From the NCBI GenBank assembly GCA_003818505.1, contig RPRI01000033.1, positions 1 to 41,183 of the forward strand: a stretch of DNA of 41,183 nucleotides. The letters are read 5' to 3'. This document shows, one piece after another, positions 5,220-37,530 of this stretch. The notes under the pieces were generated by a model. That model was not told where the DNA came from. It saw only the letters and a program-made list of their open reading frames with translations, and did not search any database. How positions within the stretch are numbered: the stretch's first letter is position 1; the number at the start of each line of letters is the position of its first letter. Source of the stretch: Desulfobacteraceae bacterium. GTDB taxonomy: Bacteria > Desulfobacterota > Desulfobacteria > Desulfobacterales > RPRI01. The translations under genes and the position numbers were made by a program.

Positions 5220-6845
5220 CTATGGACTTTCATTTTCCCCGTTTTCCTGCCCGAAGAAAAGCATTTCCATTTTCCAATTATCCCCGATTTTTTTAAAAAA
5301 GAGCCAACGGGAAAAAGGAGTGGAAGTATCTTTGCCATGCCAGTCCTCCATGCAAAGGATCCGATTGTTGTCAAGCTTTTCAAGTATTCGCTTTTCAAAA
5401 CATGTATTTGAGGGAAAGCGGGGTTTTGCCTGTTTTAAAAAGTTTCGAAATTCAATTTTTTTCAGGAGCCCTTCTGATGTTGGAATCGGAAAGGAAGCAA
5501 CAATCGATGAGACAGCATCAAACTTCTCTTCCTGTATTGACTGGTCAAAAAACTTTAATATTTTCTCAAAAGTCGTTTTTACATCATTTTCCGGCTTGAC
5601 AAAACCTCGACCCCTGATCTGATGAAAAGCCCCGTTATCAAAAATCAACCATGCGGTTCTTCCCAGAATTTCTGGAATCTTTATGGCCGGTGTTTTCTGC
5701 AGGTCGCGAAAAAAGGCATCAAAAGCCATTCCGGGAATAAGAACCAGATCTGTATCCGGCCAGATCTCCAGAGCTTTTTTCCCTGCAGACAAAAAATCGG
5801 AGACCATCAATAATCCGCTTACTTTTATGTTCCCTCCATAGGAAATGTTTTTTACCGGGAAAACATGGTGTTCATTTGAAACACTTTTTGCAGCCTGCTC
5901 AACCATCCTTGAAATATCCGGATAAGCCGCTTCCGAAGCCAACCATAGCACCTTGAGGAAAGCTCCTCCAAATGTTTTTAAATTTCCCAGAAGAGTAAAC
6001 TTCATGATCCGTTTTATTGGTAGTCCCAGGGTTTCTGACAGGTTCGGCTGTGGAACTATCGGGACCTTCGGGAATTTGTTTTGCATCCGTTTCACAAAAG
6101 CCTGAAATTCATCCCACGAGCATTCAATTTCTTTTTTCATCCCCTCGGGCGTTTTTTTCGAAAACCCAGGCCACCAGAGAAGAATCGATCTGGCTCCGTT
6201 ATCTGCTAAAAAGCCGAAGGTTTTTTCGATGTCGTCCCAGCCGCAAATCATAGGCAAAGTAACGATGGTTCCTGTAAAATCAATATGGTATTTCTTTAAC
6301 AGGCTAAGGGACGAAAGGGCTATTTTTGCCGGTTTTTCGGTTCTTTGGAAGATTCGTGCCCAAAGCTTAGGCTGCGTGGAATGCAGGGAAATATTTATTT
6401 CAAGAGGACGAAATTGTGCCAATTTCTGAACAAGCGGTTCATCAAGCATGGATGCGTTGGTGGTGAAGTGGAGAATGTTGGCAAGGTATTTTTCGCGAAC
6501 AAGAGCGAGAATTTCAAAAAACTGCGGATGGAGAAAAGCCTCTCCTTCAGAAATTCGTCCCGGTAAGGAATCGCTCATATGAATTTCGCCGGCGAAATTG
6601 GCAGAGCCGAGAGAAAGCTGGAGTTTAACGTCTTCAATATCCCTGAAAATATTTTGTTTTATTGGGAACGGATTCATGCGGTTTGAACAAAAAAGGCAGC
6701 GCGCATTGCACACGGCGCTTATTGGTATTTGTTCTTGGGGTTGGCCTGAAGCTACCCATTCCTGGAAAAAAATACTATCTTCTGCTTGAAAAGAAGTCTT
6801 TGAACCCCCTCGATTAAACCCCGGCAAGTCTTTTTTGATTTTCAT
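5220..6845 (-). CDS. Radical SAM protein with a DUF512-like region
   Basis: About 541 residues from the ATG at 6845; a GTG at 6893 would add 16 unlikely residues and has no ribosome site. Near the N-terminus is the CX3CX2C cluster CNARCLFC, which binds the SAM-activating 4Fe-4S cluster. The radical SAM barrel follows, with ISEGEAFLHP in the GGEP-like position and ISLHSTQP further on. The middle third contains VKNISYGGNIKVSGLL, then a DxL segment and DLVLIPGMAF, resembling DUF512 as found in radical SAM proteins with an N-terminal PDZ-like domain, a domain not seen here. The last ~120 residues match nothing I recognise. It lies 70 bases downstream of the HD-GYP gene on the same strand, so co-transcription is likely. 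The substrate is unknown. Confidence 0.8.
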   Translation of the reverse strand: MKIKKDLPGFNRGGSKTSFQAEDSIFFQEWVASGQPQEQIPISAVCNARCLFCSNRMNPFPIKQNIFRDIEDVKLQLSLGSANFAGEIHMSDSLPGRISEGEAFLHPQFFEILALVREKYLANILHFTTNASMLDEPLVQKLAQFRPLEINISLHSTQPKLWARIFQRTEKPAKIALSSLSLLKKYHIDFTGTIVTLPMICGWDDIEKTFGFLADNGARSILLWWPGFSKKTPEGMKKEIECSWDEFQAFVKRMQNKFPKVPIVPQPNLSETLGLPIKRIMKFTLLGNLKTFGGAFLKVLWLASEAAYPDISRMVEQAAKSVSNEHHVFPVKNISYGGNIKVSGLLMVSDFLSAGKKALEIWPDTDLVLIPGMAFDAFFRDLQKTPAIKIPEILGRTAWLIFDNGAFHQIRGRGFVKPENDVKTTFEKILKFFDQSIQEEKFDAVSSIVASFPIPTSEGLLKKIEFRNFLKQAKPRFPSNTCFEKRILEKLDNNRILCMEDWHGKDTSTPFSRWLFFKKIGDNWKMEMLFFGQENGENESP

Positions 6846-27687: not shown

Positions 27688-28117
27688 GGCTTGGCTTACT
27701 TCCTCAGCTTTTGTGTTCAACTTTCTCGAATAATGACTGCTCTGGTATCTTTGCGGGAATCGTTGCGTTCATATCGGCCTGCATGACATAAAACGGTCCG
27801 CTTCTGAGTCTAAAAGAACATTCGGAGTCTCTTCTCCCATACTCCTTACTACTTTGTCCAGGAGACCCTTAATAACATCCAATTTTTGGCCGAGTACAAG
27901 GAAGGCGATAATTTCAACCACAGGAATACATGGAGTATTTCGAGGATAGCGCTTTGCTTCACTTCGTGCCAAAATTTGAGCCTGAGACAGTAATCGGGTA
28001 AAAGGGGGAGTTATGCAAAGGTCTCTCCAGGTGCTTGGGCAGTTGTTCCTGTTCAATCCTGATGATCTGCCCTGCTTTTTCCTCTTTTTTTGCTCTCTCA
28101 GTTCAGTTATCTTGCAT
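27644..28117 (-). pseudogene. IS256-family (Mutator) transposase relic, N-terminal part
   Basis: Reading the reverse strand from the ATG at 28117, with GGAGGG just upstream, gives MQDN, a TGA stop, TERAKKEEKAGQIIRIEQEQ and LPKHLD. The MITE at 27862-28025 interrupts here. Removing it with one 5-bp duplication continues the frame as KVVRSMGEETPNVLLDSEADRF. After single-base shifts come AGRYERNDSRKDTRA, GHYSRKLNTKAEEVS and PKLRTLPFETAI. These are the conserved N-terminal blocks of IS256-type transposases. Only about the first 100 of ~400 residues remain, and the catalytic DDE region is absent. No inverted-repeat end of the IS is recognisable. Confidence 0.85.
27862..28025 (-). mobile_element. 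MITE-like element, copy A (164 bp) with TCCAG target duplication
   Basis: The element starts GAGACCCTTA and ends GCAAAGGTCTC. It is flanked by identical 5-bp direct repeats TCCAG at 27857-27861 and 28026-28030. It is inserted in the IS256-family transposase relic and splits it between the codons for LPKHL and D. It is alignable along its length with copies B (29253-29394) and C (37359-37501), with 22 extra bases in the middle at about 27940-27962. It has no transposase gene of its own; its open frames are incidental. Confidence 0.9.
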
Positions 28118-28210
28118 TTGTAGCCCTCCTGATGGTTGAAGTTTGAGTCTTTGAACAACCCAAACCATACCAGATTGAGAGCTACTCTTTTAAAAATGTG
28201 CAAAAAATAT

Positions 28211-28375
28211 TATACGTTATCCGCCGATGACACCGGACTTGGATTTTACATATGCCACGAGATTATAGCCAAACATAAAGGGAGCATAAATCTCGAAAGC
28301 TCTGAGTCAGGCGGCGCAAAAGAGTTTCAGTATATGGATCAAATAATTGTAAAAATTTATGCCCGGAAAGTTTGA
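28211..28375 (+). pseudogene. C-terminal remnant of a sensor histidine kinase
   Basis: On the + strand the frame carries DTGLGFYICHEIIAKHKG and then SINLESSESGGA. This is the G2 box and last strands of a HATPase_c domain (usual form GTGLGL-x-I-x-x-x-I-I-x-x-H-x-G). Everything upstream (sensor, H-box, N-box) is absent, and about 90 unassigned bases separate it from the transposase relic. The ATG at 28136 that opens the frame is incidental. It ends two codons before the convergent PilZ gene. Confidence 0.75.
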
Positions 28376-28381
28376 TCAGAA

Positions 28382-28759
28382 TCATCCCGCAGGCGCGGAA
28401 AGAATATCTTTGAAATAGACACGGTCTTTATCCGAAATCTCAACAATGTAAACCCCGATTCCTACTGTTTTATTTTCACCGTCTATTCCATGCATATCCG
28501 TCCAGACGACTTTTCCTGAAACCTTTATAGAATAGTAATCGGGAGGTCTTATGTGCAATGTGCATATTTCATTTAGAAGGAGAGTTTCATCAAAGGATGT
28601 GGAAACTCCCAGCAGAAGGGATTCATCACAGGTTATGGAAACCCCCTGAGCGCTTATACTCGTAGTTTCACCCTCAACAGTTACGCTGTTCAGGATGATC
28701 GTGACGGGCCATCTGGTATCCAGCCTGTAATACTTCCGTCTGTCGGCAGGTTCGCTCAA
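28382..28759 (-). CDS. PilZ domain protein
   Basis: A 125-residue single-domain protein. PilZ domains bind cyclic di-GMP. The first motif RKYYR (RxxxR) is at about residues 8-12 in RRKYYRLDTRWPV. The second, normally D/N-x-S-x-x-G, appears as SISAQG, so the acidic/amide residue is Ser. A ~15-residue insertion relative to a minimal PilZ lies around ESLLLGVSTSFDETLLL. The start is a TTG at 28757-28759, decided by a strong AGGAGG seven to eight bases upstream. It is the only intact gene in a stretch of decayed genes, and with the HD-GYP gene it suggests c-di-GMP signalling, possibly controlling polysaccharide production. Confidence 0.87.
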   Translation of the reverse strand: MSEPADRRKYYRLDTRWPVTIILNSVTVEGETTSISAQGVSITCDESLLLGVSTSFDETLLLNEICTLHIRPPDYYSIKVSGKVVWTDMHGIDGENKTVGIGVYIVEISDKDRVYFKDILSAPAG

Positions 28760-28941
28760 TGTTAACCCTCCTGTAATAAAATAAACACTTTATTTGAAGA
28801 AGTTACAGAAGAAATAAGAATTTAAATCCTATCTATTGAAAAACCGATATAATGTCAAACAATAACCGGCTTTTACCTGAAACCGTGGGAAGCATAACAT
28901 TCGTGCCGGGTATATGCATGGCTGGTAAGTCTTCTTTCCAG

Positions 28942-28963
28942 ATCCTGCCAGGTATGGCAGGAT
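28942..28963. repeat. Perfect 9-bp hairpin upstream of the PilZ gene
   Basis: ATCCTGCCA (28942-28950), loop GGTA, TGGCAGGAT (28955-28963). It lies about 180 bases upstream of the PilZ start in a 255-base non-coding stretch. There is no T-run on either side, so it could be an operator or a short dispersed repeat rather than a terminator. Confidence 0.5.
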
Positions 28964-29014
28964 GAATTCACCGAAATCCTATCGTGTCCGTTCATTATCT
29001 TATGTAGTGAACTT

Positions 29015-29498
29015 TCAACTTGCAATTAACCTGTGTCGGAGGATTTCACGAGGAAGAATATTTTCAATCCGGATTTTTAGCTCTGGTATATTATTTTTAA
29101 CAATGTCCCAGAACATTGCGTAATCCACTCCAAAATAGTGGTGGATAAGCCGATCACGCATTCGTGTCATCAGCTTCCGTGCAATTTCCGGATTCTTCTC
29201 CTTAAATTACTCGGGAATTTTTTTTAAGATTCACCGATAATTTCCAGACTGCGAGACCTTTGAAGAACGTCCAATTTTGGCCAAGTACAAGGAAGGCGAA
29301 AATTTTAACCACAGGAATACATTTAGTATTTCGAGGATTAAAATTTGAGCCTGACACAGTAATCGGGCAAAAGAGGGCGTTATGCAAGGGTCTCACTGCG
29401 ACTGAAAGCGCGCTTCAACCTATCATCTTTCATGAAAAAACTTCGGACAATTCTTTCGAGTTATTGATGAGATAATTGATTTCATCAAGAATGCGCAT
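29015..29498 (-). pseudogene. HepT-like (DUF86, HEPN) gene relic interrupted by a MITE
   Basis: From the ATG at 29498 the reverse strand reads MRILDEINYLINNSKELS, then after a one-base shift MKDDRLKRAFSRS. MITE copy B intervenes. Removing it with one duplication gives a direct join to LEIIGES. After one more shift come KKIPE, an in-frame TAA, then FKEKNPEIARKLMTRMRD, RLIHHYFGVDYAMFWDIV and KNNIPELKIRIENIL, ending in TGA at 29015-29017. The HEPN motif R-x4-H is kept (RDRLIH). HepT proteins are the HEPN toxin half of MntA-HepT pairs. No nucleotidyltransferase (MntA) partner is present, and several lesions show the gene is dead. Confidence 0.87.
29253..29394 (-). mobile_element. MITE-like element, copy B (142 bp) with ACTGC target duplication
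   Basis: It starts GAGACCTTTGAAGAACG and ends CAAGGGTCTC. Its two ~30-base ends pair as imperfect inverted repeats (23 of 30 positions by eye). Identical 5-bp direct repeats ACTGC flank it at 29248-29252 and 29395-29399. It is inserted in the HepT-like relic, between the codons for AFSRS and LEIIGES. It has the same orientation as copy A and lacks that copy's 22-base middle insert. Confidence 0.92.
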
Positions 29499-29560
29499 GA
29501 GAAGATTAGGAAGTGATAGGGACATACTGAACCTCACTTAAAATAATCTGTTATTAATTT

Positions 29561-29614
29561 GCTCACTAACCCCGCCGCAAGCAGCGGGGTTAGTGCTCGC
29601 TGTTTCGGTTCAAG
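29561..29614 (+). repeat. Dispersed repeat with 12-bp GC-rich hairpin (copy 1)
   Basis: It contains the perfect stem CACTAACCCCGC (29564-29575) / GCGGGGTTAGTG (29584-29595) with an 8-base loop, followed by GCTCGCTGTTTCGGTTCAAG (29595-29614). The same 20 bases and the GCAAGCAGCG loop region recur in reverse orientation at 39233-39280. It lies 45 bases past the end of the molybdate transporter gene and could act as a transcription barrier or mRNA 3' stabiliser, but there is no T-run. Confidence 0.7.
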
Positions 29615-29658
29615 TACTTATTATGTTTTGCACCGATGACTTGATCAGTGCCTGGCAT

Positions 29659-30858
29659 TCAAATCTTTAACCACCCTCTCCTAAGAGATGTATCCAAAAT
29701 AACTCCAACAAGGAAGGCTGCCCCCATGTTCCACATCGCAAAGGCAGCTACTATCAGCATAACATAGAAATCGGATTTCCTGCCGCCGATATCTTTTACA
29801 ACCAGCGCCAGTTCGGAGCCGGCGAAAAACAGGATTACCCCCAGTATAGGGTCGGGGAAAATCTTAAAGATGATTGAAACGGATTCGCTGAAAAACAGGG
29901 CTATGAAAATGAGAATACCCCCCAGTATCACCAAGGCTCCACCCGTTTTGGCCCCGAAACGGACATGCCCAGCCATTCCTCCTGCGCCATGACACATGGG
30001 AATGCCGCCAAAGAGAGGAGCGATGAGGTTCATAATCCCCTGGGAAACAGCGATTTTCTTCTCACTTACCTGCCGGTCGGGAAACAGGTGATTGTTCTCG
30101 GCAACAATTGCAATTACGGCATTGCCCAGGGTTAATGGTATCTGGGGAAGTGTGAAGAGCAGGGTGCCTGCAACAATGTCATTCCACCCTATAATCGGCA
30201 GGCTGAATACAGGCAACCTGAAGCCAACATGAATCTTGGCCAATTCCGAAATCAGCTGCGGATTCATGATGACCGAGGAGACTATCCCGATGATCAGGAG
30301 CAGGAACATAGCCGGAATCCTGGGGTTCGTCAGAAGAAGATAGGTTACGACCAGGGCGATGCCGGCCAGAACAGGCGCCGCCCTCATACGGTTGATGCCG
30401 CCCACCATGAAAGAGAGCCCCAGTCCCAGCATGATGCCCCGCACAACAGGCTTGGTGGCTATCCGTGCAATCGGCCTTAAAGCGCCGGTTATGCCTGCCA
30501 GAAGCCAGAAAAGTCCGGTGGCGAGGCCTGCTCCGAAGAGAACTGCCGGGCTGATGCCCCCGGCAATAGCTGCCGCACCGATGGCTTTCATTGGCTGAAT
30601 GGGGATCGGTGTTTTGTAATAAATTCCGGCGGCCATCAAAAACAGGCCAAACATGAAGAGGAGCCCCAGCGGATCAACCTTTACTATCGTGATATAGGCC
30701 ACGACAAAGGGGATCAGTGTGCCGATATCGCCGAAAGCGCCGGCCCACTCCATCTTGTTATAGAGATTCTTTGATTGCTTTGTGTGCTCATTTTCGGTAT
30801 GCGCCGGATCACCGCTCTCAGTTTTCTTAGACAGATCGTCCGCCGTCATGGCAATCAT
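29659..30858 (-). CDS. Molybdate transporter, MOT1 family
   Basis: A 399-residue membrane protein with about 10-12 segments after a hydrophilic N-terminus. The MOT1 family signatures are clear: EWAGAFGDIGTLIPFVVAY, then TPIPIQPMKAIGAAAIA near the N-terminus, and GGIPMCHGAGGMAGHVRFG in the second half. MOT1 proteins are high-affinity molybdate importers distantly related to SulP sulfate carriers. Starts at 30858 or 30849 are both possible; AGGAAGG lies nearby. It is the last gene of a three-gene leftward operon, 135 bases after the molybdenum storage protein, which gives a coherent uptake-and-storage unit. Confidence 0.9.
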   Translation of the reverse strand: MIAMTADDLSKKTESGDPAHTENEHTKQSKNLYNKMEWAGAFGDIGTLIPFVVAYITIVKVDPLGLLFMFGLFLMAAGIYYKTPIPIQPMKAIGAAAIAGGISPAVLFGAGLATGLFWLLAGITGALRPIARIATKPVVRGIMLGLGLSFMVGGINRMRAAPVLAGIALVVTYLLLTNPRIPAMFLLLIIGIVSSVIMNPQLISELAKIHVGFRLPVFSLPIIGWNDIVAGTLLFTLPQIPLTLGNAVIAIVAENNHLFPDRQVSEKKIAVSQGIMNLIAPLFGGIPMCHGAGGMAGHVRFGAKTGGALVILGGILIFIALFFSESVSIIFKIFPDPILGVILFFAGSELALVVKDIGGRKSDFYVMLIVAAFAMWNMGAAFLVGVILDTSLRRGWLKI

Positions 30859-30993
30859 CCTTCCTGCTTTTCTTTTTACTTGCCGACAAGTTCCGGACCC
30901 GCCCGCCGTATTTCGCGCGCGCGGGAAATAAAGCCGAAACGGATTGAGAAGAACCCGGATTAAGAGAGCATATTCGGACTTTTTATGAAACCA

Positions 30994-31827
30994 TCATTTT
31001 TGTTTAAAAATAATTGTTCCAACATGCTCCCCGGCAAGAGCTTTTGTGATATTACCAGGCACCATGCCGTTGATTATCTGAACCTCTTCGATCACTTCAC
31101 TGTTCTGCATAATCTCAAGGCAGGGCCGTTCTATCACCAGGTCATCCTGGTCCCGTTCCATCAGGTCCCGTGCCCCTATTTTTGGAATAAACTCGGCATC
31201 TGGATTTTTCTTCGGATCATCGGTATAGAGGCCATTCTCATCTTTTACAAACAAGACCCGCCGCGAGCCAATGAGGTCTGCCAGAATAATCAATCCTGAA
31301 TCGGTGCGGTGAACCGGTATTCGACCTTTCGCCGGTTTGATCGCAAAGTAATCATAAGGCGGCATCCCGTGCATCACCGGAATAATCCCCTCAGCGAAAT
31401 AGGTTGGAAGCTTGACTATGTCGCTATGAGAGATTTTGATGCCGCCCCAGGGAGAAAGCAGTACGGCGATCATGAGGGCATTCTGTTCGGATACCATACT
31501 TCCGAAACGAGCGATTATGCCGGTGGGCATTCCCATTTCCAGCCCAATTGTATAGATATGGCGGCTCCGGGTTCCTCCACCGGTTACTATCAGCATTTTA
31601 TGCTTGTTGCGATTGGCAACTATTTCTTTTAAAATACCGGGAAGTACCTGTACTCCCCGGTCGCAGATTGATTGCCCGCCGATTTTAACAACTGCAACAT
31701 CGGGGTACAGCCTTTCCTGCGGAGCAATGTTCAGCTGAGCAATAAACTCTTTGCTTACAAGGCTCTCTCCCATCAAACGGCTTTTAACATGAAGCCGCTT
31801 GCCGTCTTTATCACGAACCAAAGCCAT
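30994..31827 (-). CDS. Molybdenum storage protein subunit (amino acid kinase fold)
   Basis: A 277-residue protein of the UMP-kinase-like amino acid kinase family that closely follows the layout of the Azotobacter MoSto subunits (MosA/MosB). Landmarks are VVKIGGQSICDRG (phosphate-binding strand-loop), LIVTGGGTRSRHIY, GMPPYDYFAIKPAKGRIPVHRTDSG, VLFVKDENGLYTDDPKK (nucleotide site) and the C-terminal IINGMVPGNITKALAGEHVG. MoSto stores molybdenum as polyoxomolybdate clusters inside a hexamer, filled using ATP. Azotobacter needs two subunits; only one gene is here, so a homohexamer or a partner elsewhere is implied. GGAGGA lies six bases before the ATG. The neighbouring MOT1 gene supports the function. 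Confidence 0.9.
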   Translation of the reverse strand: MALVRDKDGKRLHVKSRLMGESLVSKEFIAQLNIAPQERLYPDVAVVKIGGQSICDRGVQVLPGILKEIVANRNKHKMLIVTGGGTRSRHIYTIGLEMGMPTGIIARFGSMVSEQNALMIAVLLSPWGGIKISHSDIVKLPTYFAEGIIPVMHGMPPYDYFAIKPAKGRIPVHRTDSGLIILADLIGSRRVLFVKDENGLYTDDPKKNPDAEFIPKIGARDLMERDQDDLVIERPCLEIMQNSEVIEEVQIINGMVPGNITKALAGEHVGTIIFKQK

Positions 31828-31860
31828 GATTTATCCTCCGGAATAAGTTGTGACCTTGCC

Positions 31861-32070
31861 CTATTTCTTTTTCTTTTGATGCGTTACATCCTTTCCGAGC
31901 GGCACCAGTTCGGCGCCGACAGCTTTAGCTATCTGTTCCAATTCGGTTAAACGCAAGTGCTCGGCATATATTTTCAAATTGCAATCCGAGACGGCAACTG
32001 CGCGGTACCTAGGCTTCTTTTCCCCCTCCTTTAAAGCAGTTCGTTCTCTGTAAAATATCTTTCCGGTCAT
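31861..32070 (-). CDS. 69-residue hypothetical protein leading the molybdenum operon
   Basis: A small soluble protein with a good ribosome site (AAAGGAG, seven bases before the ATG) and a stop 33 bases before the storage-protein start. It is charged at both ends (KIFYRERTALKEGEKKPRYR and a KKKK tail). The middle reads AVAVSDCNLKIYAEHLR followed by LTELEQIAKAVGAELVPL, a plausible beta-alpha-alpha unit with a single Cys. No family is recognised. Its place as first gene of the unit suggests an accessory role in molybdenum storage or control, but this is inference. Confidence 0.8.
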   Translation of the reverse strand: MTGKIFYRERTALKEGEKKPRYRAVAVSDCNLKIYAEHLRLTELEQIAKAVGAELVPLGKDVTHQKKKK

Positions 32071-32216
32071 GGCCTTTCTCCTTTCGTTAGTTTATCTCCG
32101 TTTCTTACGTTAGAACCGATCCAAGTGTGCTTAAGTCGACAAATAAACATTCGGGTAATAAATCGGAAATGAGACAGGATCGGGTAAATGCTTAGAATTT
32201 GCTCTTTATATCAAGT

Positions 32217-32245
32217 TGTATCGCATTAATCGGTCTATATGTCAA
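32217..32245 (-). promoter_or_regulatory. Sigma70-type promoter for the molybdenum operon
   Basis: On the reverse strand TTGACA (32240-32245), a 17-base spacer and GATACA (32217-32222) face the small gene starting at 32070. The preceding CTTGCTGAAC and the AATGC before -10 match the promoter at 5132-5160. The transcript would have a leader of about 140 bases. I see no convincing ModE palindrome or molybdenum-cofactor riboswitch in that leader. Confidence 0.55.
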
Positions 32246-32320
32246 GTTCAGCAAGAAACTTTATTATCACCTTAACCGTAATATAGTATGCCGAATCCTT
32301 TTTGCCAACTCTTTAATTCT

Positions 32321-32986
32321 TTATATGTAGCGTTGGAGAAACAGGAAAGTGGCCAGGAGTAACATCCCTGCAAAAACGGCGATCCAGTCTGCCGGGCGCA
32401 TTTTGTATTCATTAAGAAATGTTCTTCCCGATCGTCCGAATCCGCGGGACTCCATTGCTTCAGCAAGCTCTTCCGCAAGCCGGATCGACTGAATGAGCAC
32501 CGGTATCAATAATACATGAATATACCTGACGGCTTTCAATCCCGGCCCGATCGGAATGCCTCTTGAGCGCTGAGCATCGATAACATTTCCTGCTTTGCGG
32601 GCCATGACCGGAACAAACTGCAAAGAGACGCTCATTACAAAAGCAACAGGATACGGAATCCCGGCCTTTACGAGCGCATTGCCCAGATCTTCGGGAGATG
32701 TTGAGATGAAAAAAGCAAAAAAAACCGAGGCGATGTTTATGAGTTTGAATCCTGCAATAAATGCTGAATTTACATCTGCAGACCACCAGACAACAGCGCT
32801 GAAAAATACAGCCATCGGAGCAACGGTTTTAAACCAGCGTAAAGACTCTTTTGTTTTGCCTGTCATAAGAATCAGGAGCAGAATGAACACCCATTCGGAA
32901 ACAAGAGGAAGAGGTTCGTACGAAAACAGGACAAGGATGCTGTAATAAAAGGAAAGGATAAGTTTCGTCCTCGGATCAAACGTCAT
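32321..32986 (-). CDS. ecfT: ECF transporter transmembrane protein EcfT
   Basis: About 221 residues from the ATG at 32986 (MTFDPRTKLILS); the longer frame to 33019 would overlap further into the ATPase gene. It has the EcfT N-terminus and, in the C-terminal half, the two coupling motifs with the X-Arg-Gly signature (AQRSRG and AMESRGFG) that contact the ATPases. Five to six membrane segments are seen. EcfT joins the ATPases to a substrate-binding S component, here ThiW encoded just upstream. Its start overlaps the end of the ATPase gene by 11 bases, showing coupled translation. It is the last gene of the thiamine-salvage unit. Confidence 0.9.
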   Translation of the reverse strand: MTFDPRTKLILSFYYSILVLFSYEPLPLVSEWVFILLLILMTGKTKESLRWFKTVAPMAVFFSAVVWWSADVNSAFIAGFKLINIASVFFAFFISTSPEDLGNALVKAGIPYPVAFVMSVSLQFVPVMARKAGNVIDAQRSRGIPIGPGLKAVRYIHVLLIPVLIQSIRLAEELAEAMESRGFGRSGRTFLNEYKMRPADWIAVFAGMLLLATFLFLQRYI

Positions 32987-34499
32987 TTTCCATCCTTTCG
33001 AAAGGCATAAGACCGGCAAGCCGCATTGCAGTCTTATCGGCGATCACACTGCCGGGTGTTCCTTCGGAAATTATTCTTCCCTTTGACATGAGAAGAAACC
33101 GGTGAGCGTTCTGCTTCGCAAATAAAAGATCATGGGTTGCGAGAAGAACTGAAACTCCGTTTGCCGCGAGATCCGATAAAAATTCGGAAAGGGAATGACG
33201 AAACCTGGCATCCTGCCCTGCCGTAGGTTCATCAAGCGCGAGAACGGCAGGTTTTGAGGCAAGAGCCGAAGCAAATGCAACACGTTTTTTCTCTCCTCCG
33301 CTCAGCCGGTAGGGCGCGCGTTTTAATAATTTTTCAAGTCCGAAAAGGTTAACCAGCCTCTTTATCCATTTTGCATCGTAACAATTGAGAGCGTCGGCCC
33401 CTGCCGATATTTCATCCCGCACATTAAGTCTGAAAAACTGGTTGTCCGGATTCTGAAAGGCTATTCCGGCATACCTCGCAAGTTCCGGGATTTTCATTTT
33501 TGATGTGTCCTGCCCCGATAGAATTATTTTCCCCTTATCCGGCCTGTAAAGTCCGTTAATGTGCTTTAGAAGCGTCGTTTTTCCTGCGCCGTTTGCTCCA
33601 AGAAGGGCGATGCATTCTCCTCTGTGCAGAGTGAAACTGATATCTTTCAGAAGGGGGATGCCGTTTCCGGAAAAAGAGATATCCTCGACGGAAAGAACAG
33701 TTTCATCTCCGGGCGGCGGGACGTGGGTTTCGGTTTTTTCCTCACCGTGTCCGCAGAGAAGAAATTCGAGACCGTACTCTTTGACATGACCCGGTAGAAG
33801 AAGCGCGGGAGGTGTGTCAATTACAATACGCCCTTCGTGAATAACAGCTACGCGATCAACATCAGGAAGGGTATAATGGAGCCGGTGTTCGGAGATAAGG
33901 ATGCACATTTCCAGTCTACAGATCTCTTTTAAGGCGTAACGGACTTTCTGCACGTTTGAAGGGTCCAGATTTGCATATGGCTCGTCTAGTACAATTAATT
34001 TCGGCTTAATAGCAATTGCAGCCGCTATCGCAACAAGCTGTTTTTCGCCGTCAGAAAGAGTTTGAGGGTTGCGGTAAAGAAGAGCAGCAATTGAAAGTAT
34101 CTCTGCCGCCTGCATGACTCTGTTTTTTATTTCGGATCGGGCAAGACCAAGGCTTTCAAGGCCGAAGGCAATCTCGTGCTCGACCGTGCTGCAGAAGAGC
34201 TGTGACTCAGGATTCTGAAAGACCATCCCGACCATTTGAAGCATATCGCCAACCGTCCTGATTGCAGTATCGACGCCGGCGATCCTAACATACCCCTCGA
34301 GAAAACCGCCGTAAAAATGAGGAATGAGGCCGTTCAATGTGCGGCAAAGTGTCGATTTCCCTGAGCCGCTCTGTCCGCAAAGGAGAATATATTCATTTTG
34401 CCCGGCTGTAAGATCTATTCCGTTTAATACTGGTGAGGCTGTTGTTTCCCGGTAGGAATATCTGAGGCTGTCGATTTTTATCGTATGATGATAATGCAT
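32976..34499 (-). CDS. ECF transporter ATPase, two ABC domains fused (EcfA-EcfA')
   Basis: A 507-residue protein with two complete ABC ATPase domains. Domain 1: Walker A GQSGSGKST, signature TLSDGEKQLVA, Walker B LIVLDEPYANLD. Domain 2 (from about residue 265): Walker A GANGAGKTT, signature RLSGGEKKRVAFA, Walker B VLALDEPTAGQD. ECF transporters usually use two separate ATPases (EcfA1/A2); here they are one chain. Domain 1 has the weaker LSDGE signature, an asymmetry common in EcfA pairs. The start codon overlaps the thiW stop (TGATG). It powers uptake through EcfT and ThiW. Confidence 0.93.
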   Translation of the reverse strand: MHYHHTIKIDSLRYSYRETTASPVLNGIDLTAGQNEYILLCGQSGSGKSTLCRTLNGLIPHFYGGFLEGYVRIAGVDTAIRTVGDMLQMVGMVFQNPESQLFCSTVEHEIAFGLESLGLARSEIKNRVMQAAEILSIAALLYRNPQTLSDGEKQLVAIAAAIAIKPKLIVLDEPYANLDPSNVQKVRYALKEICRLEMCILISEHRLHYTLPDVDRVAVIHEGRIVIDTPPALLLPGHVKEYGLEFLLCGHGEEKTETHVPPPGDETVLSVEDISFSGNGIPLLKDISFTLHRGECIALLGANGAGKTTLLKHINGLYRPDKGKIILSGQDTSKMKIPELARYAGIAFQNPDNQFFRLNVRDEISAGADALNCYDAKWIKRLVNLFGLEKLLKRAPYRLSGGEKKRVAFASALASKPAVLALDEPTAGQDARFRHSLSEFLSDLAANGVSVLLATHDLLFAKQNAHRFLLMSKGRIISEGTPGSVIADKTAMRLAGLMPFERMENDV

Positions 34500-35029
34500 C
34501 AGATCTCATGGCTTTCAGGATACAGGATATCAGCACGGAACAATGCCTTAAGGGCTATTACTCCAAGGATTGCACCGGTCACCGAACTTGCGAGGAAGGA
34601 AGGAATAAGCGCTAAAAGAGGTATGGCTTTCCCCATCAGCACGGGAGCAAAAAAAACCGAGCATACGACAGGGGCGATAATTCCTGACCCTATCACTTCA
34701 CCGAAAGCCCCTATATGCAGATTACGCGTATACCGGAAGAGATATCCGGCAAGTATGGCTCCTATCATCCCGCCTGGAAAAGCGAGGATTGTGCCTACAC
34801 CCAGGACATTCCGGATGAGCCCTATGACGGCGGCAGTCACCATCGCCCAGAAAGGACCGAGGAGCACAGCACCCAGCATATTGATGAAATGCTGTGTGGG
34901 ATTAATTTTGGCAATCCCGATGGGTAAGGACGTGTATGGTGAAAGCGCTATTCCTGCCGCAGCAAGAACGACAGCGTATGCAGCTTTGCGGGTATAATTT
35001 CCTGCCGGTTCCGTGTGATTGCTTTTCAT
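34499..35029 (-). CDS. thiW: ThiW, S component for thiamine-thiazole precursor uptake
   Basis: A 176-residue membrane protein with about five to six segments. The sequence GIALSPYTSLPIGIAKINPT and then FINMLGAVLLGPFWAMV and TILAFPGGMIGAILAGYLF matches the ThiW family of ECF S components, predicted to take up hydroxyethylthiazole. It lies three bases after the cytX stop and overlaps the EcfA gene by one base, giving a dedicated EcfS-EcfA-EcfT set in one operon. The upstream TPP riboswitch and thiD support the assignment. Confidence 0.9.
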   Translation of the reverse strand: MKSNHTEPAGNYTRKAAYAVVLAAAGIALSPYTSLPIGIAKINPTQHFINMLGAVLLGPFWAMVTAAVIGLIRNVLGVGTILAFPGGMIGAILAGYLFRYTRNLHIGAFGEVIGSGIIAPVVCSVFFAPVLMGKAIPLLALIPSFLASSVTGAILGVIALKALFRADILYPESHEI

Positions 35030-35032
35030 AAT

Positions 35033-36214
35033 TTATTTTTTAAAAACCTTCCTCAAAATTAAATGAATCACGAAAGTGAATATTATCGTCAAAAGCGTGG
35101 GACCAGTTACTATCTGAACAGGTTTGATAAGATAGTAGAATATGATACCAGCGGCAAGAGATATCGCAGCGACAGGGTCCGCCTTTTTATCCCTCGAATC
35201 GATTTTGAGAATGAAATAGTCCGTAAGCAGAATAGATATCAGCGGAGAAAAAACTGAGCCCAATAGATAAAGGAATGAGGTGTATTGTTCCATAGGAAAA
35301 AAGATTGCAAGAAGCGTTCCCGCAAGAGCAAAAAAGACTCCGGCAAACTCTCGTTTTATCCCGGGAAAAATATTCAAAAAAGAAATCGCCGCCGAGTGAA
35401 CATCCAGAAATGTCGTCGTAACGGTTGATAGGCCTATTATCATCAGGGCTATGATGCCAAGATTTGCGGCAAGCATCATGCCTGTCGGATCCGGTGAACC
35501 GGAATAAATTCCGCCGAACATTCCGATGCCATACATCCAGCAGCTTCCGGTAAAATATCCCGCAAACGGGGCTATCCATGCTCCCTTTTTTGATTCGGAA
35601 AGGGAAGTATAATCAGCTATAAGGGGAAACCAGCTCAGCGGCATGATTATGGAAAGCTCGAATCCTGTTCCGAAAAACCCCGTACTTCTGACTCCTGAAA
35701 GGTCCGGAGTCTGCCTTAAAATTACTACTGTCATTACAATGGTCAGAATAAGAAGGAGAAAAACAGCCGCCATGTTTAATTTTTTGAATCCATGAAACCC
35801 TGAGATGACCCAGATTCCTATCAAGACCCCCATTAAAACCGATTGAACTGCGATGTTGTCGAATTGCCATAGTGAAGATGTTACGATGCTGATCGCTCTC
35901 CCGCCTTCTATTATCATTATGGCTGTCCAGCCTATGAGCTGAAGTATATTTATAACGGAGATGAGATAAGATCCCTGTTTTCCGAACGATATCCGGGTGG
36001 ACATTATTGAAGGAAGCCGCTCGTTGAAACCTATGATCCCGGCTGATACAAGCAGGGCTGTTCCGGCCAGGTGCCCCAGGATTATGGCCCATATCCCTTT
36101 TGAAACTCCGAGATCGGCAAGATACCCGCCTGTGAGTATTTCAGCCACCGAAACGGCTGCTCCGAACCAGAGAAAAAAAAGATTAGCCGATGTTAAAGAC
36201 CGTTTATTTTCCAT
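35033..36214 (-). CDS. cytX: CytX, putative hydroxymethylpyrimidine permease
   Basis: A 393-residue NCS1-family transporter (purine/cytosine permease group) with about 12 membrane segments. The N-terminus FFLWFGAAVSVAEILTGGYL and the stretch INILQLIGWTAIMIIEGGRA are typical of CytX, repeatedly found under TPP riboswitch control with thiamine genes and predicted to import hydroxymethylpyrimidine. Its start overlaps the end of thiD by 11 bases. Together with ThiD it would bring in and phosphorylate the pyrimidine half of thiamine, while ThiW-Ecf brings in the thiazole half. Confidence 0.91.
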   Translation of the reverse strand: MENKRSLTSANLFFLWFGAAVSVAEILTGGYLADLGVSKGIWAIILGHLAGTALLVSAGIIGFNERLPSIMSTRISFGKQGSYLISVINILQLIGWTAIMIIEGGRAISIVTSSLWQFDNIAVQSVLMGVLIGIWVISGFHGFKKLNMAAVFLLLILTIVMTVVILRQTPDLSGVRSTGFFGTGFELSIIMPLSWFPLIADYTSLSESKKGAWIAPFAGYFTGSCWMYGIGMFGGIYSGSPDPTGMMLAANLGIIALMIIGLSTVTTTFLDVHSAAISFLNIFPGIKREFAGVFFALAGTLLAIFFPMEQYTSFLYLLGSVFSPLISILLTDYFILKIDSRDKKADPVAAISLAAGIIFYYLIKPVQIVTGPTLLTIIFTFVIHLILRKVFKK

Positions 36215-37016
36215 CGCATTTTATGTCTCTTTCGTGAAGTTTGAAGAAATGGTCGACAGGACCGTGACCATGCCCGATTTCAAGCGAATGCTCTATTGCG
36301 CCGGTTATATATGCCTTTGCAGCAGAGACGGCTTTAAAAAAATCTATACCTTTCGCAAGATTTGCCGCTATAGCGGAAGAAAAGGTGCAGCCGGTTCCGT
36401 GAGTATTTTTTGTTTCAATTCTTTTATTTGTCAGTTCTTTAAAAAGAATTCCGTCGTATAAAATGTCCGTTGCGAGTTTTCCGTTAAGATGTCCTCCCTT
36501 TACAACCACTTTTTTGGCGCCGAGTTTTAATATTTTTGCAGCTGCATGTTTCATTTCATCCGTGCTTTCTATCTTTGTGTCAGTCAGGGCTTCAGCCTCA
36601 TAAATGTTCGGAGTAACGACATCTGCAATAGGAAAGAGATTTTTGACAAGAGCATCCCGGGCATCATTTTTAAGAAGGCTGTATCCGCTTTTTGAAATCA
36701 TTACAGGATCAAGAACCACGGGAGGCAGATCGATTTTACCAAGAGTTTCAGCAATTGTTTCTATCAGTTTTATGCCGGAAACCATACCTATTTTAACGGC
36801 ATCGATACTGATATCTTCAAAAAGATACATGATCTGGTCATGTACCATGACAGGATCAATATCCAAAACACTGTAAACCTTCGTCGTGTTCTGTACCGTC
36901 ACTGCTGTTATCACGCTCATTCCGAAAACACCGTGAGCGTGAAACGTTTTAAGATCGGCCTGTATTCCGGCTCCGCCTGAAGGGTCCGAACCTGCTATAG
37001 TTAAAGCTGTTCTCAT
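36204..37016 (-). CDS. thiD: Hydroxymethylpyrimidine/phosphomethylpyrimidine kinase
   Basis: About 270 residues from the ATG at 37016 (MRTALTIAGSDPSGGAGIQADL), with GGGGAT six bases upstream. The longer frame to 37070 is rejected because its extra N-terminus comes from the repeat at 37044-37164. Ribokinase-fold signatures are the substrate loop AGSDPSGGAG, DPVMISKSGYSLL, VVKGGHL and the anion-hole/catalytic motif KNTHGTGCTFSSAIAA. ThiD phosphorylates HMP and HMP-P to HMP-PP, the pyrimidine donor for ThiE. It is the first gene after the TPP riboswitch in the leftward unit thiD-cytX-thiW-ecfA-ecfT. Confidence 0.95.
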   Translation of the reverse strand: MRTALTIAGSDPSGGAGIQADLKTFHAHGVFGMSVITAVTVQNTTKVYSVLDIDPVMVHDQIMYLFEDISIDAVKIGMVSGIKLIETIAETLGKIDLPPVVLDPVMISKSGYSLLKNDARDALVKNLFPIADVVTPNIYEAEALTDTKIESTDEMKHAAAKILKLGAKKVVVKGGHLNGKLATDILYDGILFKELTNKRIETKNTHGTGCTFSSAIAANLAKGIDFFKAVSAAKAYITGAIEHSLEIGHGHGPVDHFFKLHERDIKCDGK

Positions 37017-37043
37017 GTTAGATCCCCGATAAAATATGATGGT

Positions 37044-37164
37044 TTCGTAAAAAGTTGAAAATCCCGTCACTCCCGTGAAAACGGTAGTCCAGAACTAGTC
37101 GAAAAGACTGGATTCCCGCTTCTGCGGAAATGACTTAAAAGAGCATATTTATATTTTTTACGAA
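37044..37164. repeat. Inverted-repeat element in the thiD leader (121 bp)
   Basis: The outer ends are a perfect 10-bp inverted repeat, TTCGTAAAAA (37044-37053) and TTTTTACGAA (37155-37164). Inside lie two 27-base arms (37066-37092 and 37108-37134) that pair imperfectly, of the GTCA-x-TCCCG...GTCCAG / CTGGATTCCCG...TGAC type common as a dispersed repeat in proteobacteria. It falls between the TPP riboswitch and the thiD start codon, so it is part of the leader RNA and would fold as a long hairpin. Confidence 0.8.
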
Positions 37165-37295
37165 GGCATCAATGAATGATAGCTTTGTAAAAAATCTATA
37201 TATCCGATAATCGAGGGCCGGAAACCATTTTTGTTGCTGCGGGAAAACTTCTGGAAGAATAGGGGAAGGAAAGTTGCCTTCATGGGTCATATTCT

Positions 37296-37530
37296 CCGAG
37301 TTCCCTACGACAGCATTAACTGTATCAGGTTCAGTGGGTTTTTTCTCAGTCCCGTCCGGAAACCTTTGTATAATGCCCCCTTTTGCCCGATTACTGTGTC
37401 AGGCTCAAATTTCAATACTCGAAATACTTCAATGTATTCCTGCGTTTGAAATAATCGCCTTCCGTGTACTTGGGCAAAATTGGGTGTTCTCCAAAGGTTT
37501 CCGCCGTGTGCGGCGGAACACCCCAATCGG
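37296..37530 (-). ncRNA. TPP riboswitch (THI element), split in P3 by a MITE
   Basis: On the reverse strand the 3' part (37358 to 37296) contains the conserved thi-box core: GGGACTGAGA (CTGAGA at 37344-37349), ACCC, GAACCTGAT, ACAG-TTAATG-CTGT and CGTAGGGAA (37301-37309), closing with CTCGG. The 5' part lies beyond the MITE at 37530 to 37502: CCGATTGGGGTG, then GTTCCGCCG-CACA-CGGCG. Removing the 143-bp element and its 3' flanking 5-mer gives P1 CCGA/TCGG, P2 GGGT/ACCC and a perfect 9-bp P3 (GTTCCGCCG with CGGCGGGAC, one G-U pair). It should sense thiamine pyrophosphate and repress thiD-cytX-thiW-ecfA-ecfT. No clear terminator or sequestering stem is visible in the 280-base leader. Confidence 0.9.
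37359..37501 (+). mobile_element. MITE-like element, copy C (143 bp), inside the riboswitch
   Basis: It is in inverted orientation relative to copies A and B. On the + strand it starts GAAACCTTTGTATAATGCC and ends CCAAAGGTTTC. It aligns with copy B along its whole length (for example CTGACACAGTAATCGGGCAAAA is shared in sense). The flanking 5-mers are GTCCG (37354-37358) and CGCCG (37502-37506), a decayed or imperfect target duplication. The insertion point is in the 3' strand of the TPP riboswitch P3 helix. Confidence 0.88.

What the first reader, a model, noticed from the sequence alone, without database searches (positions are those of the whole stretch)
27862..37501. A small MITE family caught in three datable insertions
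Seen: copies at 27862-28025, 29253-29394 and 37359-37501 (inverted) share most positions, have ends beginning GAGACCTTTG (GAAACCTTTG in copy C), and imperfect ~30-base terminal inverted repeats. Copies A and B have perfect 5-bp duplications (TCCAG, ACTGC). In each case the older sequence (transposase, hepT, riboswitch) is rejoined by removing the element plus one duplication. Copy A has a 22-base internal insert. No helper transposase is in the window. Inference: a non-autonomous element mobilised by a transposase elsewhere in the genome.
Basis: seen in the sequence. Interest (0 to 1): 0.75.

Follow-up and report, generated by a model that had tools for sequence, protein, structure and literature searches.

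The report
IS5-type MITE family; one in riboswitch
The three repeats are copies of a small gene-less mobile DNA element, about 40 per genome here, most likely moved by an IS5-type transposase, and one copy has sat inside a vitamin-B1 riboswitch since before at least four related species split.

Summary
A, B and C are MITEs: about 41 BLAST matches in the host genome, present in all 9 same-genus genomes searched and 13 of 30 others of the order. Of 39 delimited copies, 9 have perfect and 19 have at least 4/5 five-base target duplications, against 0.13 and 1.3 expected. In seven relatives 25 of 38 are perfect, 9 of 9 in G029.

The missing helper class can be named. IS5-type transposases (NCBIfam NF033581) in the same order lie between the same ends, two with perfect 5-base duplications. 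The host keeps an N-terminal relic 65% identical to one. ISNme1 has the same end and ISPg1 nearly so (PMC4596501).

The unexpected part is copy C. It lies in the P3 loop of a TPP riboswitch and is shared by four species as one insertion (clade support 100/92); two other species show the empty site. Predicted folds keep the aptamer core, with the element as an extra arm. A separate copy in G009 sits in a second TPP riboswitch, ahead of thiC. Transposition and riboswitch function were not tested.

The parts
27862..28025 (+). MITE copy A, 164-nt form with a 22-nt cassette in the right arm
   Evidence: left end GAGACCCTTAATAAC is degenerate
27857..27861 (.). target duplication TCCAG, left of A
28026..28030 (.). 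target duplication TCCAG, right of A
29253..29394 (+). MITE copy B, 142-nt form
   Evidence: 97% identical to a copy at G000:C97:16832-16973
29248..29252 (.). target duplication ACTGC, left of B
29395..29399 (.). target duplication ACTGC, right of B
37359..37501 (-). MITE copy C, 143-nt form, ends GAAACC, no intact duplication
37290..37358 (-). TPP riboswitch, 3' part (end of P3, CUGAGA, P2, P4, P5, P1)
   Evidence: RF00059, 45.4 bits over 37285-37390; fold
37502..37530 (-). TPP riboswitch, 5' part (P1, P2, start of P3)
   Evidence: folds; alignment with empty orthologues
36204..37070 (-). thiD-like gene downstream of the interrupted riboswitch
   Evidence: ORF and product by reading; same neighbour in G005 and G007

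Best explanation
The repeats are a MITE family: 142-nt short and 164-188-nt long forms, without a transposase gene, with related but asymmetric ends (left GAGACCTTTGAAGAAC, right GAGACCTTTGCATAAC). Shown: constant ends, 5-base target duplications, many copies, the same ends on IS5-type insertion sequences of the same order, and a relic of such a transposase in this genome. Inferred: an IS5-type DDE transposase (NF033581) binds these ends and moves the element in trans with 5-base staggered cuts. Copies A and B still have perfect duplications. Copy C is old: it entered the P3 loop of the TPP riboswitch ahead of thiD before at least four species of the genus split, and was kept. Predicted folds suggest it was tolerated because P3 is free to vary in length and the element folds back on itself, leaving P1, P2, P4 and P5 paired (inferred, not tested).
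For: 41 matches in the host; duplications 9/39 perfect and 19/39 at least 4/5 against 0.13 and 1.3 expected, peak at exactly 5 bases; 25/38 perfect in relatives. NF033581 transposases between the same ends: L165 (duplication AGTGT, 369 aa), L177 (AGCCG), and L167, L169, L175 with two ends but no duplication; complete IS5 element in an IMG/VR contig with duplication GGCCT. Relic in host 65% identical to the L165 transposase over 159 aa. Copy C shared by G000, G001, G007, G008, empty in G003 and G005, one clade 100/92; aptamer core kept in the folds.
Against: No intact IS5-type element with these ends was found in the host or in the same-genus genomes searched; the MAG is fragmented. Beyond the terminal 16 bases or so the MITE and the found IS elements do not match, so descent from one of them is not shown. 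Transposition was not observed.
Confidence: 0.88

Rival explanations
1. A MITE moved by a different transposase family (for example IS1182, IS1634 or IS1380) that shares the end sequence by chance or descent.
For: Transposases of other DDE families are present in the host; NCBIfam IS1182 also matches the IS5-type proteins, below its cut-off.
Against: Of the loci fetched with PF01609 none outside the NF033581 group had a matching pair of ends; NF033581 loci repeatedly do.
Confidence: 0.08
2. An immobile repeat kept for a function, such as a REP/BIME-like or regulatory RNA hairpin spread by recombination.
For: The whole element folds into a hairpin; pooled substitutions break fewer pairs than random placement.
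Against: 5-base duplications in most young copies and empty sites in relatives. Private substitutions do not clearly avoid breaking pairs.
Confidence: 0.03
3. The copies in the riboswitch of four species are separate insertions into a hot spot and not one old insertion.
For: A second TPP riboswitch (thiC leader of G009) was hit independently, so the sites may be favoured.
Against: The four copies share letters not usual in the family (CAAACGCAGG, CGAGTATTG) and form one clade, 100/92, in the same place and orientation.
Confidence: 0.05

Closest known systems
ATR MITE and ISNme1 of Neisseria meningitidis (PMC4596501)
   Same: MITE with IS5-type ends; ISNme1 end GAGACCTTTGCAAAA is nearly identical to the right end here
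   Different: Other organism; the ATR interior was not compared letter by letter here
BrickBuilt MITE and ISPg1 of Porphyromonas gingivalis (PMC4596501)
   Same: End GAGACCTTTGCA, about 19 copies, IS5-family parent inferred from the ends
   Different: BrickBuilt carries a minisatellite and has irregular duplications; here the duplication is 5 bases throughout
IS5-type insertion sequences, NCBIfam NF033581, of the same order (L165, L167, L177)
   Same: Same ends, same 5-base duplication in L165 and L177
   Different: Carry a transposase of about 300-370 aa; no shared interior was found
BOX element between two T-box riboswitches in Streptococcus pneumoniae (PMC3049150)
   Same: Mobile repeat in a composite riboswitch leader that still seems to work
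   Different: BOX lies between two riboswitches; here the element lies inside one aptamer, in P3
Chunjie MITE of Geobacter uraniireducens (cited in PMC10969869)
   Same: Recently active bacterial MITE, reported as inserted in an operon without disturbing it
   Different: Sequence not compared here

Membership tests
MITE | Short, no transposase gene | tested here: met
   142-217 nt; no transposase frame
MITE | Terminal inverted repeats | tested here: met
MITE | Fixed-length target duplication | tested here: met
   5 bases
MITE | Many dispersed copies | tested here: met
MITE | Autonomous relative with the same ends in the same genome | tested here: inconclusive
   Only an N-terminal relic in the host; intact ones in other genera of the order
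MITE | Moved in trans by the helper | not testable with these tools
   needs a bench test
IS5 family insertion sequence | Encodes an IS5 transposase | tested here: not met
   The element has none; it works like a passenger of one and is not a member
TPP riboswitch (RF00059), site of copy C | Covariance-model score above the gathering cut-off | tested here: not met
   45.4 bits against 54.3 because the element splits it; empty orthologues in G003 and G005 score 65.2 and 70.6
TPP riboswitch (RF00059), site of copy C | Conserved core (CUGAGA, GAACCUGAU, GUAGGGAA) and P1-P5 pairing | tested here: met
TPP riboswitch (RF00059), site of copy C | Binds thiamine pyrophosphate and controls the gene | not testable with these tools
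   needs a bench test

The most novel reading that the evidence does not exclude
The MITE hairpin has become a working part of the TPP riboswitch: its 143-nt stem is kept by selection as a P3 extension in four species (four pairs changed on both sides and still pair), perhaps altering folding or stability of the thiD leader, and the family favours TPP riboswitches as targets.
Probability: 0.15. Interest if true: 0.7.

Novelty: new member of a known kind. Interest (0 to 1): 0.45.

Why it matters
It gives a bacterial MITE with a named helper class, clear empty sites, and one insertion dated by comparison between species, in a group (apparently Desulfobacterales) for which one three-term search of the paper library found nothing. 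The riboswitch copy is a natural experiment on how much foreign RNA an aptamer can carry: a long hairpin in P3 has been kept through several species splits. G029, with about 150 first-look candidate copies and perfect duplications in all nine checked, is a good place to look for current movement.

Tried and rejected
PF01609 and PF05598 loci of the host and relatives as helpers: no convincing pair of ends. An IS1634-like transposase beside a MITE in G006 (L158) looked like a helper at first; the MITE there is a complete copy standing before the gene, so it was dropped. Plasmid and phage collections: no convincing match. An exact 53-base scan of named genomes was too strict, two records only. 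Selection on the hairpin after insertion: pooled counts suggest it, but shared ancestry inflates them and private substitutions do not support it clearly, so it is not claimed. The first pair count on A3 used a structure string out of register and is void; one search is the corrected one. Orthologous sites of A and B: homology to G001 and G008 covers 28314-28873 only, short of both elements. Flanks of copy A as an IS256-type transposase: suggested by eye after removing the element, no Pfam or NCBIfam match.

Full report
What is there. The three repeats are real and at the stated places: A 27862-28025, B 29253-29394, C 37359-37501 on the minus strand. A and B are bounded by perfect 5-base duplications, TCCAG and ACTGC; C has only 3 of 5 matching letters. 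The window is contig C87 of a 4.43-Mb, 352-contig genome. One same-genus genome, G001, appears to be a Desulfobacterales MAG: its contig C183 and the named record JAUYEO010000282.1 have the same length, 17740, and the same two copies at the same spacing.

Copies. B finds 41 matches in its own genome. All nine same-genus genomes and 13 of 30 others of the order have the family, several with more than 100 first-look candidates (only about 21 per genome were scored, so numbers elsewhere are lower bounds). I delimited 39 copies in the host. Nine have a perfect 5-base duplication and 19 at least 4 of 5; pairing the left flank of one copy with the right flank of another gives 0.13 and 1.3. Perfect matches at other lengths are none at 3, 6 and 8 and one each at 4 and 7. 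In seven relatives 25 of 38 copies are perfect and 34 at least 4 of 5; in G029 all nine checked are perfect. The ends are constant and nothing extends beyond them.

Forms. Lengths fall in classes: 142-143, 164-168 and about 188 nt. The difference is a 22-nt cassette (GCGCGAAAGCTTCACTTCGTGC in most) that lies in the right arm, in the left arm, or apparently in both. Its 14-base core occurs 22 times exactly in the genome, nearly all at this family's copies, with pairs 56 bases apart in the 188-nt copies. Copy A has it in the right arm, so A's insert marks a subfamily.

Helper. The end GAGACCTTTGCATAAC (as a degenerate 16-base pattern, up to 2 mismatches) occurs 189 times in the host against 36 for the reversed control. 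Of 78 places with at most one mismatch, 43 lie outside this family. Several of these bound other short elements with different interiors, for example in L131 with duplication AAATC, so one set of ends seems to be used by several MITE families. A full-text search found the end in ISNme1 and, with small differences, ISPg1, both IS5 family, each with MITEs that share it (PMC4596501). I then searched 291 genomes of the order for NCBIfam NF033581, transpos_IS5_4. Two of those loci are complete elements: L165 (1240-2675, duplication AGTGT) and L177 (892-2318, duplication AGCCG). L167, L169 and L175 have two ends without a duplication, and others have one good end. In some (L169, L176) the two ends differ in the same way as those of the MITE, GCATAAC or GCACAAC at one and GAAAAAC at the other. 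A complete IS5 element with GAGACCTTTGCAAAAC ends and duplication GGCCT is in an IMG/VR contig. In the host only a 164-aa N-terminal piece was found (C271), 65% identical over 159 aa to the L165 transposase, with domain PF05598. Shown: same ends, same duplication length, relic present. Inferred: that this kind of transposase moves the MITE.

Copy C and the riboswitch. On the minus strand copy C interrupts a TPP riboswitch (RF00059, 45.4 bits, under the curated cut-off of 54.3) that lies between a thiE/thiL-like gene and thiD. A search of the genus for RF00059 gave orthologues beside the same genes in G005 and G007 and with closely matching leader sequence in G001, G003 and G008. In G001, G007 and G008 the MITE is in the same place and orientation; in G003 and G005 the site is empty, with P3 read as GUUCUGC-AUAUAGGG-GCRGAAC. 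The four copies form one clade (100/92) among 92 copies, though that tree has few columns and most forks are unresolved. So this is best read as one insertion that predates the split of these four species. Predicted minimum-energy folds of all four filled leaders keep P1, P2, P3, P4 and P5, with the element as a long arm on P3. Six P3 pairs are kept in all four. In the element 97% of cells pair and four pairs changed on both sides (11 of 500 shuffles as high). With four related sequences this is weak, and private substitutions do not clearly avoid breaking pairs. I do not claim selection on the hairpin. Removing the element in a script gives an intact P3 with either flank copy kept.

A second hit. 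In G009 a different TPP riboswitch, ahead of a thiC-like gene, carries a MITE of this family after CUGAGA, flanked by AAGCG and AACCG; G006 shows the uninterrupted AATCG. It does not group with copy C. Two independent hits on TPP riboswitches in ten genomes seems more than such small sites should draw, but it was noticed after the fact and not tested.

Copies A and B. Neither could be dated between species, because homology to relatives stops short of both. B lies in a HepT-like remnant (PF01934 on the C-terminal piece) whose pieces, read apart, already have stops and a frame change. The flanks of B were not joined (see referred steps).

What is known. Bacterial MITEs with IS5-type ends are known (ATR, BrickBuilt; PMC4596501). 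A mobile repeat in a composite riboswitch leader is known for BOX and T-boxes (PMC3049150). A 2024 review calls regulation through MITE riboswitches conceivable (PMC10969869). I found no report of a MITE inside an aptamer in the papers searched, which is a limited library and few searches.

Verdict. A new MITE family of a known kind, with the helper class identified and one well-dated insertion in a riboswitch. The family itself is ordinary; the riboswitch copy is the part worth a bench test.

Noticed in passing
L238 (G009:C117), around 354-560: A MITE of this family lies in a second TPP riboswitch, ahead of a thiC-like gene, with flanks AAGCG/AACCG; an independent insertion.
   Followed up: partly
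G000:C271:4926-5420 (L186), with L183, L188 and L093 in G001, G008 and G003: An N-terminal fragment (about 140-185 aa) of an IS5-type transposase, still open. In G000 and G003 it lies beside the same genes (DUF167-like and hldE-like by reading). Either an old relic or a kept truncated protein; not tested for selection.
   Followed up: partly
L050, L060, L116, L121, L128, L129, L131, L133 (G000): Other short elements with the same or nearly the same ends and different interiors, some with 5-base duplications; several MITE families appear to share one set of ends.
   Followed up: partly
window 27948-27970; G000:C86:11822 and 11878; C167:11682 and 11738: A 22-nt cassette sits at two mirror positions in the element, in one orientation, alone or doubled. 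How it spread between arms is unexplained.
   Followed up: partly
G029 (loci L249-L258): About 150 first-look candidate copies and perfect duplications in all nine checked, so probably very recent activity. An IS5-type transposase runs off a contig end (L141), with an end-like GAGAGCTTTGAAAAT downstream.
   Followed up: partly
L205 (IMGVR_UViG_2617271245_000004) 5405-5546: A 142-nt MITE-like element with GAGACCTTTGCAAAACCCC ends and duplication AGGCT in a viral contig; its interior is different.
   Followed up: no
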